This document shows positions 545 to 8,452 of a DNA stretch of 8,452 bases, piece by piece. Position numbers and translations under genes: made by a program. The notes under the pieces are model-generated. The model was not told the DNA's origin, searched no databases, and saw nothing but the letters and a program-made list of their open reading frames with translations. This stretch comes from a candidate division TA06 bacterium SM23_40. Its GTDB lineage: Bacteria; LJUI01; SM1-40. The stretch is taken from NCBI GenBank assembly GCA_001303705.1, contig LJUI01000111.1, positions 1-8,452 of the forward strand. The letters run 5' to 3'. Every line of letters starts with the position of its first letter. Position 1 is the stretch's first letter.

Positions 545-1867
545 ATGCGGGCGAGACGAGTCCTCATCATGGGGGCGGCAGGGCGCGATTTCCACAACTT
601 CAACGTCTGTTTTCGAGACGATGAACGGTACGAAGTAGTCGGCTTCACCGCTACGCAGATCCCGAACATCGTCGACCGTTCATATCCACCCGCGCTGGCC
701 GGGCCGCGCTATCCTCAGGGCATTCCGATCTATGATGAGGAGGAGCTCCCTCTGTTGATCGCATCCCGTGACGTCGATCTTGTCATCTTCGCGTACAGCG
801 ACGTCACACACGAACATGTCATGCATCAGGCGTCGATCGCGCTGGCGGCGGGCGCTGACTTCGAGATTCTCGGCCCCCGGCGAACGATGCTGGCCAGTCG
901 AGTCCCCGTCGTATCAGTGTGTGCCGTCCGTACAGGGAGCGGGAAGAGTCAGACGACGCGGCGCATCAGCGATCTGCTAAAGTCCAGAGGGAAGCGCGTC
1001 GTAGTCGTGCGCCACCCTATGCCGTATGGTGATCTTGGCGAACAGGCTGTCCAGCGGTTCGAGACGAGGGAAGATCTCGATGCCTACCGGTGCACGATCG
1101 AGGAGCGCGAGGAGTACGAGCCCCATCTCGAGCGCGGGACCGTCGTGTACGCTGGCGTCGACTACGGGAAGATACTCGCTCGCGCCGAAGCCGAGGCAGA
1201 GATCATTCTCTGGGATGGGGGCAACAACGATATGCCCTTCTACCGCCCTGATCTCTACGTGGTGGTGACAGACCCGCACCGTGCAGGCCATGGGATGCGC
1301 TACCATCCTGGCGAGGCCAACCTGAGAAGCGCGGATGTCGTGGTGATCAACAAGGAAGATTCCGCCTCCCGGGAACAGATCGACAGAGTCCGCGAGACGA
1401 TTGCGCGTCTGGCCCCGCATGCAACAGTGATCGACGCGGCTTCTCCCATCTCTATTGACGACGAGTCGATCATCCGAGGAAAGCGCGTGCTCGTCATTGA
1501 AGATGGTCCGACCCTGACCCATGGGGAGATGACCTTCGGTGCAGGGACCCTGGCCGCCCGTGCGGCAGGGGCGGCAGAGATAGTCGATCCGCGGCCGTAT
1601 GCGGTTGGGAGCATAAAAGAGATATTCGAACAGTACCCCGACCTCGCCTGCCTTCTGCCTGCGATGGGGTACGGCGCCGATCAGGTCCGCGAGCTCGAGG
1701 AGACGATTGCCAAAGTGCCGAGCGATACCGTAATCATCGCCACGCCTGTCGATCTCAGGAAGATCATTTCTCTCGATAGGCCGGCTGCCAGGGTCACCTA
1801 CGAGCTCAGGGAGATCGGGAGCCCGAATCTGGAGATGGTCATCGACGAATTTCTGGAGCGCCTGTGA
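545..1867 (+). CDS. Cyclic 2,3-diphosphoglycerate synthetase-like P-loop protein (predicted GTPase)
   Basis: A 440-residue protein resembling the cyclic 2,3-diphosphoglycerate synthetase / 'predicted GTPase' family (COG2403 type), whose archaeal members are about 460 residues. The N-terminal part (residues 5-125) looks like a nucleotide-binding Rossmann fold beginning VLIMGAAGRDFHNFN. A P-loop follows, TGSGKSQTT at 130-138 (Lys134, Ser135). Further on are ILWDGGNND (221-229, a possible Walker B Asp224) and VVINKED (266-272), an NKxD-like guanine-recognition motif. The ATG start is well supported by AGGAG at 533-537, seven bases away. Its TGA stop overlaps the ATG of the carbamate kinase gene (TGATG), so the two are probably translationally coupled. 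The archaeal enzyme makes cyclic diphosphoglycerate, a thermoprotectant. Whether bacterial homologues do so is not established here, and the link to carbamate kinase suggests some other acyl-phosphate or nucleotide-dependent role. Family membership is likely; the reaction is unknown. Confidence 0.75.
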   Translation: MRARRVLIMGAAGRDFHNFNVCFRDDERYEVVGFTATQIPNIVDRSYPPALAGPRYPQGIPIYDEEELPLLIASRDVDLVIFAYSDVTHEHVMHQASIALAAGADFEILGPRRTMLASRVPVVSVCAVRTGSGKSQTTRRISDLLKSRGKRVVVVRHPMPYGDLGEQAVQRFETREDLDAYRCTIEEREEYEPHLERGTVVYAGVDYGKILARAEAEAEIILWDGGNNDMPFYRPDLYVVVTDPHRAGHGMRYHPGEANLRSADVVVINKEDSASREQIDRVRETIARLAPHATVIDAASPISIDDESIIRGKRVLVIEDGPTLTHGEMTFGAGTLAARAAGAAEIVDPRPYAVGSIKEIFEQYPDLACLLPAMGYGADQVRELEETIAKVPSDTVIIATPVDLRKIISLDRPAARVTYELREIGSPNLEMVIDEFLERL

Positions 1868-4986: not shown

Positions 4987-5295
4987 GTGAAGTTCTGGCG
5001 TACGCCGCTCGATAGTGACCGGGTGAAGGTTCCTCATGGGAGGATCCACATCATCGTAGAACGGTGTAAAGGTTGCGCCTACTGTGTTGAGTTCTGCCCC
5101 AGAGACGTGCTGGAGATGTCGACGGAATACAACCAGAAGGGTTACCATCCACCGTATGTCAAGGTCGAGGATGACTGCGTCAACTGTCGATTGTGCGAAC
5201 TACTCTGTCCCGAGTTTGCGATCTTCTGTACGTTGAAGGAAGAGGAAGAGGTTGGAAACAAGGAGGAGGTCGGACACGTTGAAAGCCGATCCTAA
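4987..5295 (+). CDS. korD: 2-oxoglutarate:ferredoxin oxidoreductase, delta (2x[4Fe-4S] ferredoxin) subunit
   Basis: A 102-residue ferredoxin-like subunit that carries electrons from the catalytic subunits of a four-subunit 2-oxoacid oxidoreductase to external ferredoxin. Two full cluster motifs are seen: C27-x2-C30-x2-C33-x3-C37-P and C64-x2-C67-x2-C70-x3-C74-P. These are joined by a segment (EYNQKGYHPPYV) typical of KorD proteins. An extra Cys81 follows. The GTG start has an excellent GAGGAGG site at 4972-4978, eight bases away. The C-terminus is acidic and charged, and its coding bases also carry the ribosome binding site and start of korA, with which it overlaps by 17 bases. It lacks the long N-terminal extension of pyruvate-type fused enzymes. 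Identity as a 2-oxoacid oxidoreductase delta subunit is strong; the 2-oxoglutarate substrate is inferred from sucCD next door. Confidence 0.92.
   Translation: MKFWRTPLDSDRVKVPHGRIHIIVERCKGCAYCVEFCPRDVLEMSTEYNQKGYHPPYVKVEDDCVNCRLCELLCPEFAIFCTLKEEEEVGNKEEVGHVESRS
5261..5270 (+). promoter_or_regulatory. Ribosome binding site deciding the korA TTG start
   Basis: AGGAGGAGGT inside the 3' end of korD lies eight bases before a TTG at 5279. A longer frame would begin at a TTG at 5252, before this site. The 5279 start gives MKADPKGVLTGEHYLDGDHA, which fits the alpha-subunit family. The site encodes Lys-Glu-Glu-Val of KorD at the same time. Confidence 0.8.
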
Positions 5296-6436
5296 AGGGG
5301 TGCTCACAGGAGAGCACTATCTCGATGGCGACCATGCCTGCGCCGAGGGAGGCCTCGCTGCCGGCTGCCGGTTCTTCGCAGGATATCCCATTACACCTTC
5401 CACCGAGGTCGCAGAGCGGATCGCGGAACGCTTCCCGATGGTCGGAGGCATATTCATCCAGATGGAGGACGAGCTTGCCTCGATGTGCGCACTCATCGGT
5501 GCTTCGTGGGCAGGGGCGAAGTCGATGAGCGTCACATCGGGACCCGGGTTCTCTCTGATGATGGAGAATCTGGGGCTGGCGGCGATGATGGAGACTCCGT
5601 GTGTGCTGGTCAATGTGCAGCGGGGCGGGCCGTCGACAGGATTGCCCACGCTTCCCGGGCAGGCGGACATGATGCAGGCGAGGTGGGGCTCCCATGGCGA
5701 CTATGAGATCATCGCCATTTCGCCCAGTTCTCCCCAGGAGTGCTTCGATTTCGTGATCGACGCATTCAATCTGTCGGAGCAGTGGAGGGTTCCGGTTCTC
5801 GTCATGACCGACGAATGCGTGGGGCACATGACCGAGAAAGTCGTGATTCCGCCTGCATACGAGATAGAGGTCGTTCCCCGGAGGTACACCACGCTCCCTC
5901 CGAGCGAATACCTTCCGTACAGGCCGGACCCCGATATGGTGCCGCAGATGATCAAGGCGGGCGACGGATACAGGATTCATACCACTGGTCTCACTCATGA
6001 TGAGCGCGGGTACCCGGTGATGAGCGCCGAGTGTCAGGAGCAGCTCGTCAGGCGGCTTGTAGAGAAGATACGCCTCCACGCCGACCAGATCATTCGGTTT
6101 GAAGAGGATGAGATAGAAGATGCTGATGTAGTAGTTGTCTCCTACGGCATCAGCTCGCGCGTGGCAGTGCGTGCGATCGCGCTCGCGAGGAAGGAAGGGA
6201 TCAAGGTAGGACACCTGAGGCTCATTGTCGTTTGGCCATTTCCTGAGAAGCGGATTCATGAACTCGCGAAGAAGATCAAAGCATTCGTGGTAGTCGAAAT
6301 CAACTACGGCCAGATGGTGTACGAGGTTGAGCGGTGTGCGCACGGTCAGGCTGAGGCGATCCTGGTGCCGCACGGCGGAGGATGGGTGCACGATCCGGCC
6401 GATATTCTCGAAAAGATCAAGGAGGCAGCGCGATGA
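5279..6436 (+). CDS. korA: 2-oxoglutarate:ferredoxin oxidoreductase, alpha subunit
   Basis: A 385-residue catalytic subunit; with KorB it forms the thiamine-diphosphate enzyme that oxidatively decarboxylates 2-oxoglutarate with CoA to succinyl-CoA, CO2 and reduced ferredoxin. The N-terminal pyrimidine-binding domain shows ACAEGGLAAGCRFFAGYPIT (20-39), then PSTE, MEDELASM (62-69), SGPGFSLMMEN (87-97) and QRGGPSTGLPT (114-124). A transketolase-like C-terminal domain (about 270-385) contains VVSYGISSRVAVRA (286-299) and VVEINYGQM (338-346). The gamma domain is not fused; it is encoded separately at 7313. The uncommon TTG start is chosen on the ribosome site. The gene overlaps korD by 17 bases and ends with TGA overlapping the ATG of korB (ATGA), which suggests coupled translation of the complex. 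Branched-chain or pyruvate substrates are alternatives, but the sucCD neighbours favour 2-oxoglutarate. Confidence 0.92.
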   Translation: MKADPKGVLTGEHYLDGDHACAEGGLAAGCRFFAGYPITPSTEVAERIAERFPMVGGIFIQMEDELASMCALIGASWAGAKSMSVTSGPGFSLMMENLGLAAMMETPCVLVNVQRGGPSTGLPTLPGQADMMQARWGSHGDYEIIAISPSSPQECFDFVIDAFNLSEQWRVPVLVMTDECVGHMTEKVVIPPAYEIEVVPRRYTTLPPSEYLPYRPDPDMVPQMIKAGDGYRIHTTGLTHDERGYPVMSAECQEQLVRRLVEKIRLHADQIIRFEEDEIEDADVVVVSYGISSRVAVRAIALARKEGIKVGHLRLIVVWPFPEKRIHELAKKIKAFVVVEINYGQMVYEVERCAHGQAEAILVPHGGGWVHDPADILEKIKEAAR

Positions 6437-7320
6437 GTAACGGGAAGCCCTCAGAAGAACACCACCCTATGGAAGCGCTGCTGCGCATGGATCGAATCCC
6501 TCACATATGGTGCTCTACGTGCGGCTTGGGCACCTCAGTGAGTGCATTCGCCCTTGCTCTGGAGGACCTCCAGTACGACCTGGACAAGATCTGCATCGTC
6601 TCCGGCATCGGATGTACGGGAAGAGTGGCCGGATACGTGAAGCTCGATAGCTTCCACGCGACACATGGGAGGGCTATTCCCTTCGCGACCGGACTCAAGC
6701 TCGCCAACCCCCAACTCAAGGTGGTGGTCTTTAGCGGCGATGGCGATCTGATCGCTATCGGCGGGAATCACTTCATCCACGCCGCGCGGCGGAACATGGA
6801 CCTCACGGTCATCTGCGTCAACAATTTCATCTACGCCATGACCGGCGGCCAGGTCGCTCCTACGAGTCCGCTGGGTGCGAGCTGCTCGACGACGCCATAC
6901 GGAAACTACGAGCGTCCGTTCAATATCCCGCATCTCGCGGAGTCGTGCGGCGCGGTATATGTGGCCCGGTGGACTGCTCTCCATCTGCGGCGGACTGCGA
7001 AGTCGATAGCCGAGGCGATGCGGAAGCCGGGGTTCTCTGTCGTCGAGATCATCTGTCCCTGCTCGACGCTCTACGCCAGGCGGAACCGGCTGGGAGATGG
7101 CCTCGAGTTGATGAAGTTTTACCACGAGAACAGCATCATCAAGCACGGCGCTGACCCACGGGATGTCGACATCGACTTTCAGAGTCCGATCGTCGTCGGG
7201 AAGTTCGTCGACAGAGACCGTCCCACATTCATAGACGGATACAACAGGGCGATGACGGCAAAGCTGGGCGAGAAGTTCGAGCCATACGGCGTTGCTCCTG
7301 CGGAGGTGCACGATGGCTGA
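6433..7320 (+). CDS. korB: 2-oxoglutarate:ferredoxin oxidoreductase, beta (thiamine diphosphate) subunit
   Basis: A 295-residue subunit binding thiamine diphosphate and one 4Fe-4S cluster. Probable cluster ligands are C27 and C30 (WCSTCGLGT), C61 (SGIGCTGR) and C208 or C210 (IICPCSTLY), the usual C-x2-C...C...C pattern of this family. The diphosphate/Mg motif is GDGD (102-105), followed 24 residues later by Asn-Asn (130-131). ATHGRAIPFATGLKLANP (76-93) is the conserved block before the motif. The ATG at 6433 overlaps the korA stop and has GGAGG at 6421-6425, seven bases away. A longer frame reaching 6382 would duplicate korA coding and is rejected. The stop TGA lies inside the start of korC, an 8-base overlap. 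The C-terminal stretch (FVDRDRPTFIDGYN) fits KorB-type proteins of about 280-300 residues. Confidence 0.93.
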   Translation: MSNGKPSEEHHPMEALLRMDRIPHIWCSTCGLGTSVSAFALALEDLQYDLDKICIVSGIGCTGRVAGYVKLDSFHATHGRAIPFATGLKLANPQLKVVVFSGDGDLIAIGGNHFIHAARRNMDLTVICVNNFIYAMTGGQVAPTSPLGASCSTTPYGNYERPFNIPHLAESCGAVYVARWTALHLRRTAKSIAEAMRKPGFSVVEIICPCSTLYARRNRLGDGLELMKFYHENSIIKHGADPRDVDIDFQSPIVVGKFVDRDRPTFIDGYNRAMTAKLGEKFEPYGVAPAEVHDG

Positions 7321-7876
7321 GATCCGTGTGACAGGTTTCGGCGGTCAGGGGATCATCCGTCTCGGATATATCATCGGCAAGGCGGCCTCGCTCTATGGGC
7401 AACAACATGCCACGCTCACCCAGAGCTTCGGGCCCGAGGCGAGGGGGAGCGCCTGCAGCGCTCAGGTCGTCGTCTCAGACATGCCGGTACTCTATCCGTA
7501 CATAACGCGGCCCGACATCCTGGTCGCGATGTCCCAGGAGGCGTACGGGAAGTATATCGACAACCTGAAGGAAGGCGGGCAGTTGCTGTTCGATCAAGAC
7601 CTGGTGAGCACCGGGGAGCTTCCGAAGTCGGTGAAGGCGTTCTCCATTCCCGCCACGCGCCTGGCCGAAGAGATGGGCAACAGGATCATCGCCAACATCG
7701 TCATGCTCGGATTCTTCACCGCCGTGACGGGCCTGATCGAACCTGAGGCGGTGCGGAAGGCGATTCCGGGATCAGTTCCGGATCGATTCGTTGAGCTGAA
7801 CCAGAAGGCGTTCGATGTTGGATACAATTATGTCAAGGAGGGCGCGGTGGTCGCCCCGCCAGAGGACAGGTCGTAG
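7313..7876 (+). CDS. korC: 2-oxoglutarate:ferredoxin oxidoreductase, gamma subunit
   Basis: A 187-residue gamma subunit of the 2-oxoacid:acceptor oxidoreductase, the domain thought to bind CoA or support the complex. The glycine-rich N-terminus EIRVTGFGGQGIIRLG (3-18) and the block TQSFGPEARGSACSA (36-50) are diagnostic. VAMSQEAYGKY (71-81) and NIVMLGFFTAVTGLI (128-142) also match the family. The ATG at 7313 is preceded by GGAGGTG (7302-7308). The frame extends back to 7292, but the extra residues lack family similarity. It is the last gene of the korDABC block, ending in TAG 79 bases before the HdrA-like gene, with no clear terminator between. Confidence 0.94.
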   Translation: MAEIRVTGFGGQGIIRLGYIIGKAASLYGQQHATLTQSFGPEARGSACSAQVVVSDMPVLYPYITRPDILVAMSQEAYGKYIDNLKEGGQLLFDQDLVSTGELPKSVKAFSIPATRLAEEMGNRIIANIVMLGFFTAVTGLIEPEAVRKAIPGSVPDRFVELNQKAFDVGYNYVKEGAVVAPPEDRS

Positions 7877-7955: not shown

Positions 7956-8452
7956 ATGGAGAAGGGAGTTCTGGTCATCGGTGGTGGCATCAGCGGGATG
8001 CAGGCAGCCCTTGACCTGGCCAATTCAGATATCAAAGTCCATCTGGTGGAGAGGTCGCCGTCGATCGGCGGGATGATGGCGCGACTCGACAAGACCTTCC
8101 CCAGCATGGACTGCGCGATATGAATGCTCGGCCCGAAGATGATGGATGTCGGTCGACATCCGAACATCACACTCTGGATGTATAGTGAAGTAGTTGGGCT
8201 CGGGGGTGAGGCGGGAGACTTCACCGCCGGAGTACGGCGGCGTGCCACCTTTGTCGATTGGGATAAGTGCACAGGCTGTGCAGCATGCGGCGACGTTTGC
8301 CCGGTGAAGATGTGGAATGAGTTCGAGAGCGGCCTGTCCCGGCGCGCAGCCATCTACCGGCCGTTTCCTCAGGCCGTTCCCAACAAATTCGTCATCGACC
8401 GTCAGGGCACCCCGCCCTGTCAGGCCGCCTGTCCCCTGCACGTGAATGCGCA
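7956..8452 (+). CDS. hdrA: HdrA-like FAD/iron-sulfur protein, probable selenoprotein (5' part; TGA at codon 56 read as Sec)
   Basis: Start of a large heterodisulfide reductase subunit A-like protein; 165 codons are visible and the gene runs out of the window. Residues 5-15 ([11 protein letters not shown]) form the FAD-binding dinucleotide fold. [19 protein letters not shown] (37-55) leads into codon 56, a TGA, followed at once by [17 protein letters not shown] (57-73). HdrA proteins have D-C-x-x-C-I/M-L-x-P-K-M here, so the TGA replaces a conserved Cys. After it come [18 protein letters not shown] (100-117), a 4Fe-4S motif (C105, C108, C111, C115), then [35 protein letters not shown] (151-165) resembles the N-terminal iron-sulfur domain of GltD-like oxidoreductases, as in large bacterial HdrA fusions. 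TGA ends three other genes in the window, so this is not a changed genetic code. A nonsense mutation or sequencing error is the alternative. Role by context: taking electrons from Kor-reduced ferredoxin. Confidence 0.87.
8121..8123 (+). other. In-frame UGA, probable selenocysteine codon (Sec56)
   Basis: The TGA is in frame with the ATG at 7956 and with HdrA sequence on both sides. It occupies the second cysteine of the family's DCxxC motif. No base is inserted or deleted, since the frame before and after is the same. Sec in HdrA at this Cys position is known from methanogens, as I recall. Confidence 0.82.
8144..8161 (+). promoter_or_regulatory. SECIS-like hairpin downstream of the in-frame UGA
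   Basis: GGATGTC (8144-8150) pairs perfectly with GACATCC (8155-8161) around a GGTC loop (8151-8154); a further U-G pair (8143/8162) can extend it. The loop begins 27 bases after the UGA, within the 16-37 base spacing I recall for bacterial SECIS elements. The loop starts with two guanines; GGUC also occurs in the E. coli fdhF SECIS loop, where it contacts SelB. The bulged U of fdhF is not evident. The hairpin lies within coding sequence. Confidence 0.7.

What the first reader, a model, noticed from the sequence alone, without database searches (positions are those of the whole stretch)
7956..8452. HdrA-like gene with an in-frame UGA at a conserved cysteine: probable selenoprotein
Codon 56 is TGA within MDCAI-[TGA][10 protein letters not shown]. 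HdrA homologues carry Cys at this spot, and the frame continues for over 100 codons with clear HdrA features (4Fe-4S motif, GltD-like PCQAACP). TGA is used as a normal stop by the GTPase-like, korA and korB genes nearby, so recoding is local. Standard gene calling would miss this gene, or call a short fragment or one of the antisense frames.
Basis: partly seen in the sequence, partly recalled or inferred. Interest (0 to 1): 0.85.

Follow-up and report, generated by a model that had tools for sequence, protein, structure and literature searches.

The report
Selenocysteine-containing HdrA next to Kor genes
The gene at the end of this piece of bacterial DNA almost certainly reads one UGA 'stop' as the rare amino acid selenocysteine, inside an electron-transfer protein (HdrA) of a kind known since 2006 to carry selenocysteine; it is a real but expected member of that family, with an unusual fused layout.

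Summary
Confirmed. The HdrA frame (7956-8452, running off the contig) has one in-frame TGA at 8121-8123 (codon 56), in MDCAI-U-MLGPKM. In HdrA paralogues and solved structures this column is Cys; in PDB 9sfi_A it is a non-standard residue (X). The genome holds selA, selB, tRNA-Sec (anticodon TCA) and a selD with its own in-frame TGA. Three more hdrA copies in the genome, and hdrA loci from at least seven named bacterial phyla, carry TGA at this codon. Twenty bases after the TGA all 38 distinct TGA genes keep a hairpin (7 pairs, loop GGTC), nearly frozen even at silent positions and with one covarying pair; the 34 Cys genes lack it. This is a bacterial SECIS. Sequencing error, pseudogene, restart at the following ATG and a changed code all fit worse. 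Bacterial Sec-HdrA was described in 2006 (PMC1794560), so the kind is known. Less ordinary: the gene follows korDABC, as in many phyla, and joined to the only contig that continues it, it encodes a 1484-aa HdrA-GltD-HdrA fusion. That join is inferred: the 104-base overlap is shared by a Cys paralogue's contig. The same layout is contiguous in Eisenbacteria and WOR-3 loci.

The parts
7956..8452 (+). 5' part of a selenocysteine hdrA gene (FAD domain, inserted ferredoxin domain, start of the GltD-like domain); cut by the contig end
8121..8123 (+). in-frame TGA read as selenocysteine (U56); second position of the CxxU pair, aligned to residue 197 (Cys) of the 5odc_A chain
8112..8114 (+). codon of Cys53, the first cysteine of the CxxU pair
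8144..8161 (+). bacterial SECIS hairpin GGATGTC-GGTC-GACATCC, 20 bases after the TGA; loop 8151-8154
8259..8309 (+). [4Fe-4S] motif of the inserted ferredoxin domain ([17 protein letters not shown])
8409..8441 (+). start of the inserted GltD/NfnA-like domain ([11 protein letters not shown])
4987..5295 (+). korD, ferredoxin-like subunit of 2-oxoacid:ferredoxin oxidoreductase
5252..6436 (+). korA (frame as listed from TTG; true start probably downstream), ends in TGA as a stop
6430..7320 (+). korB, ends in TGA as a stop
7316..7876 (+). korC (gamma subunit), directly upstream of hdrA
8349..8452 (+). 104 bases shared exactly with the ends of contigs C176 and C47 (assembly junction)

Best explanation
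The gene is a bacterial hdrA whose UGA codon 56 is decoded as selenocysteine by SelB and tRNA-Sec, directed by a SECIS hairpin in the coding sequence 20 nt downstream. The Sec replaces the second Cys of the conserved DCxxC pair in the FAD domain. The protein probably continues into a 1484-aa fusion of HdrA (FAD1 with CxxU), a GltD/NfnA-like NAD(P)H domain, and a second HdrA half (N-terminal Fe-S domain plus FAD2, without CxxC). Encoded directly after korDABC and, on the joined contig, before mvhD- and hdrBC-like genes, it most likely moves electrons between 2-oxoglutarate:ferredoxin oxidoreductase, NAD(P)(H) and Hdr-type partners by flavin-based bifurcation or confurcation. Decoding of Sec is strongly supported by sequence but not shown at the protein level; the electron route and an Fe-S ligand role for the Sec are inferred.
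For: Sec machinery in the same genome: selB 392 bits and selA 558 bits, adjacent on C5; tRNA-Sec 77.7 bits with anticodon TCA, beside selD, which has its own TGA at CAG-U-ASK. Same-codon TGA in 4 hdrA copies of this genome, Cys in paralogues. In matches across phyla 40 TGA against 34 Cys codons. PDB 9sfi_A has X at this column, other HdrA chains Cys. The SECIS hairpin is kept in all 38 distinct TGA genes, with 99.2% of cells paired against 20-58% when slid; the pair of columns 29/36 goes UA, UG, CG and never CA. Silent positions are frozen in Sec genes and not in Cys genes: residue 65 third base C in 38/38 against 6/26, p = 1e-11; residue 66 p = 5e-6 (the sequences are related, so p is only a guide). 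The hairpin motif occurs only 4 times in the genome, at the four Sec hdrA genes, against 0 for the reversed-pattern control. Window against L049 shows third-position-biased change before and after the TGA (31/8/3 and 58/20/27 at positions 3/1/2), as for one translated frame. Counterparts of the bifurcation residues E356, K409 and the four cluster Cys of 5odc are all present in the joined protein. kor-hdrA synteny in many phyla.
Against: Folded alone, the window hairpin is not exceptional (z -0.86); the case for it is comparative. No proteomics. The gene is cut by the contig end. The continuation into C176 rests on a 104-base overlap that contig C47 (a Cys hdrA paralogue) also shares, so the exact C-terminus is not certain. 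The genome is an 89.8% complete draft in 189 contigs. Function is inferred from domains and neighbours only.
Confidence: 0.94

Rival explanations
1. Sequencing or assembly error: the real codon is TGC or TGT and the protein is a Cys-HdrA.
For: Draft assembly; a Cys paralogue (C47) shares 104 identical bases with this contig's end.
Against: The same TGA in 3 other hdrA genes of the genome and in dozens of independent assemblies; the Cys paralogue is only 68% identical as protein and lacks the hairpin; full Sec machinery present.
Confidence: 0.02
2. TGA is a true stop: either a decayed gene, or two proteins, the second starting at ATG 8124.
For: An ATG directly follows the TGA and opens a frame to the contig end.
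Against: That codon is Ile (ATA/ATT/ATC) in the other 37 TGA genes; the frame is under protein-level constraint on both sides; a free 55-aa piece would split the FAD domain.
Confidence: 0.02
3. TGA is read as a standard amino acid throughout the genome (changed genetic code, e.g. Trp).
For: None found.
Against: TGA ends korA, korB and the GTPase-like gene in the window; the aligned residue is Cys, not Trp.
Confidence: 0.01
4. Sec is inserted, but the protein ends differently from the 1484-aa model because contig C176 follows C47 rather than this contig.
For: C67 and C47 both overlap C176 by the same 104 bases.
Against: C176 is the only contig in the assembly that continues this sequence; Eisenbacteria L049 and WOR-3 L050/L051/L056 have contiguous Sec-HdrA plus GltD plus the next HdrA parts at 54-61% identity.
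Confidence: 0.2

Closest known systems
Bacterial selenoprotein HdrA (Zhang et al. 2006, PMC1794560)
   Same: HdrA with in-frame UGA, several copies per genome, in anaerobes; 16 bacterial cases were listed in 2006, 7 of them in Syntrophobacter fumaroxidans
   Different: Those discussed sit in hdrA-frhD-frhG-frhA operons; here the neighbours are korDABC, and the host lineage is not among those named in the passages read
Type II and type III HdrA of methane-metabolizing archaea (PMC12054007)
   Same: Type II has two thioredoxin-reductase (FAD) domains; type III has a GltD domain inserted by the Fd domain, proposed to use NADH; type II keeps the bifurcation residues in both halves
   Different: Here both features are in one protein, with Sec, in a bacterium beside kor genes; that paper had only nine type III sequences, one class of which is named A9-TRX-C
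Methanogen HdrA with solved structure (5odc_A) and PDB 9sfi_A
   Same: Same FAD, inserted-Fd and C-terminal Fd domains; the column of U56 is Cys in 5odc_A and X in 9sfi_A
   Different: No GltD insert; a single HdrA unit with its own N-terminal domain
Desulfococcus multivorans hdrA (PMC5109826)
   Same: Bacterial hdrA split by annotation at a UGA upstream of a SECIS
   Different: Different organism; gene context not compared

Membership tests
Bacterial selenoprotein gene | in-frame TGA aligned to Cys in homologues | tested here: met
[quoted passage not shown]
   stem 20 nt after the TGA, loop GGTC with both G invariant
Bacterial selenoprotein gene | genome encodes SelA, SelB, SelD and tRNA-Sec | tested here: met
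Bacterial selenoprotein gene | Sec detected in the protein | not testable with these tools
   needs mass spectrometry or 75Se labelling
HdrA family | sequence match to HdrA models and solved HdrA | tested here: met
   NF040770 3e-62 for the window part; 1097 bits for the joined protein, just under its whole-protein cut-off of 1100; 5odc_A 2e-54
HdrA family | FAD-proximal cluster cysteines and bifurcation residues E356/K409 | tested here: met
   in the part that lies on contig C176, so it depends on the join; the choice of E356/K409 is from PMC12054007, that of the cysteines from memory
Type III HdrA (GltD insertion) | GltD domain inserted next to the Fd domain | tested here: met
   (PRK12771 570 bits, residues 146-653) on the joined protein; only its first residues lie in the window
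Type II HdrA (two FAD domains) | second thioredoxin-reductase-like domain | tested here: met
   on the joined protein
CoB-CoM heterodisulfide reductase (function) | reduces CoM-S-S-CoB | not tested
   a bacterium with kor neighbours is not expected to have this substrate; family name only

The most novel reading that the evidence does not exclude
A selenocysteine-containing, GltD-inserted double HdrA that works with KorABCD (and MvhD/HdrBC-like partners) as an electron-bifurcating or confurcating complex linking 2-oxoglutarate oxidation or synthesis, ferredoxin and NAD(P)(H), spread across many uncultured bacterial phyla together with one nearly invariant SECIS.
Probability: 0.35. Interest if true: 0.55.

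Novelty: new member of a known kind. Interest (0 to 1): 0.3.

Why it matters
Standard gene callers cut these genes at the UGA, so central electron-transfer proteins of uncultured anaerobes are missed or split. The kor-linked Sec-HdrA clade, with a SECIS nearly identical across phyla, offers a simple search signature and a testable idea of how 2-oxoglutarate metabolism is tied to bifurcation. The selenoprotein status of HdrA itself is already known.

Tried and rejected
Rfam scan of the window: nothing. Single-sequence folding of the SECIS was not significant (z -0.86), so comparative evidence was used. Literature: no paper held both Eisenbacteria and selenocysteine; none held HdrA with Cys386; two papers held kor, HdrA, gene cluster and bifurcation, neither evidently on this arrangement from its abstract, and not read further. 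Which Fe-S cluster the CxxU pair binds could not be tested, because no coordinates were examined. Structure prediction was not run: the joined protein exceeds the length limit and is not a single locus. Rejected: sequencing error, pseudogene, restart at ATG 8124, changed code (see rivals).

Full report
Observation. The frame from ATG 7956 has exactly one in-frame TGA, at 8121-8123 (codon 56), and stays open to the end of the window. The window is the whole of contig C67 of a draft genome of 2.88 Mb in 189 contigs, 89.8% complete, so the gene is cut. Read with Cys at the TGA, it matches HdrA models across the TGA and solved HdrA chains. TGA is an ordinary stop of korA, korB and the GTPase-like gene.

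The position. tblastn over the genome's own hdrA copies shows TGA at this codon in four genes (C67, C176 twice, C86), and Cys in paralogues with DCxxC. Over loci from named genomes and unnamed relatives, the column is TGA in 40 matches and TGC/TGT in 34. Sec genes come from Eisenbacteria, WOR-3, KSB1, Calditrichota, Acidobacteria, Zixibacteria, Aminicenantes and others. In PDB 9sfi_A the aligned residue is X, a non-standard residue, where 5odc_A, 8rvu_a and 7bkb_A have Cys. That X is Sec is my inference.

The machinery. selA and selB lie side by side on C5. tRNA-Sec, anticodon TCA, lies on C58, about 160 bases before selD, which has an in-frame TGA at CAG-U-ASK. One MvhD/FlpD-like gene on C86 has TGA at CNW-U, where others have CNWC; one on C35 has TGA elsewhere. 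The genome thus probably has at least seven selenoprotein genes, not all equally well supported.

The SECIS. Twenty bases after the TGA lies GGATGTC-GGTC-GACATCC (8144-8161). Folded alone it is unremarkable. Across 38 distinct TGA genes it is nearly frozen: third positions of residues 64, 65 and 68 never vary, while silent positions on either side do. The one varying inner pair is UA in 19, UG in 14, CG in 5, and never CA; 99.2% of cells pair, against 20-58% when slid. Shuffles alone are weaker (16 of 500 reach the covariation score), because most pairs do not vary at all. Cys genes do not keep these codons. The locus search used peptide patterns outside this hairpin, so the conservation is not a product of selection by the search. 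In the genome the motif occurs four times, at exactly the four Sec hdrA genes. This is the position and form of a bacterial SECIS.

Alternatives. An error would have to recur in many independent assemblies. Restart at ATG 8124 is not conserved: the codon is Ile in the other 37 genes. Change between the window gene and L049 is third-position-biased on both sides of the TGA, as for one translated frame.

The rest of the protein. The last 104 bases equal the end of C176, and joining gives 1484 aa. The same 104 bases also end C47, which carries a Cys hdrA, and only these three places hold them in full. So the join is the only continuation present, but the assembly graph is ambiguous there. The same order (Sec-HdrA, GltD domain, further HdrA parts) is contiguous in Eisenbacteria L049 and WOR-3 L050, L051 and L056. 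The joined protein has the FAD1 domain with CxxU, a GltD/NfnA-like domain (residues about 150-630), the rest of HdrA with the counterparts of E356, K409 and the four cluster cysteines, then an HdrA N-terminal domain and a second FAD domain without CxxC. Downstream on C176 are mvhD- and hdrC/hdrB-like genes (named from their sequence motifs) and another Sec hdrA.

Context and kinship. korABC lies just upstream of hdrA in most Sec loci that have enough flank; exceptions include L048/L049, L074, L077, L117 and L119. Many kor-linked copies lack the GltD insert. In a tree of 64 sequences the window lies inside an all-Sec group of 25-30 rows; the Sec label needs 3 changes against 20.5 in shuffles.

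Mechanism. Shown by sequence: the recoding signals and the conserved bifurcation residues. Inferred: Sec serves the second position of a CxxC pair, probably an Fe-S cluster ligand or near one; the GltD domain reacts with NAD(P)H, as proposed for type III HdrA (PMC12054007); Kor supplies or takes low-potential electrons.

Known or new. Bacterial Sec-HdrA is in the literature since 2006 (PMC1794560), and HdrA is in the 2026 review (PMC13188914). GltD-inserted and double-FAD HdrA are described in archaea. The kor-linked Sec form with both features I did not find described in the held library, which is not proof of novelty. Verdict: a real selenoprotein gene, new member of a known kind.

Noticed in passing
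window 8349-8452; G000:C176:16974-17077; G000:C47:1-104: 104 identical bases end both the Sec hdrA contig (C67) and a Cys hdrA contig (C47), though the two proteins are about 68% identical; both lead into C176. Either a collapsed repeat, a gene conversion, or a branch of the assembly graph.
   Followed up: partly
G000:C86 (L131) and G000:C35 (L128): Two FlpD/MvhD-like genes with in-frame TGA, one at the CNW-U place where others have CNWC.
   Followed up: partly
G000:C58 (L042/L034): tRNA-Sec lies just before a selD that itself has an in-frame TGA.
   Followed up: partly
G000 as a whole: All 59 relatives offered were 'same domain' only: no held genome seems to share even its phylum, so the host is a lone lineage in this set.
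   Followed up: no
G058:C1:3208224-3208685: An hdrA match with two in-frame TGA codons, a possible double-Sec HdrA.
   Followed up: no
window 545-1867: GTPase-like protein of 440 aa with only weak family matches (CobW, MobB), upstream of a carbamate kinase gene.
   Followed up: no
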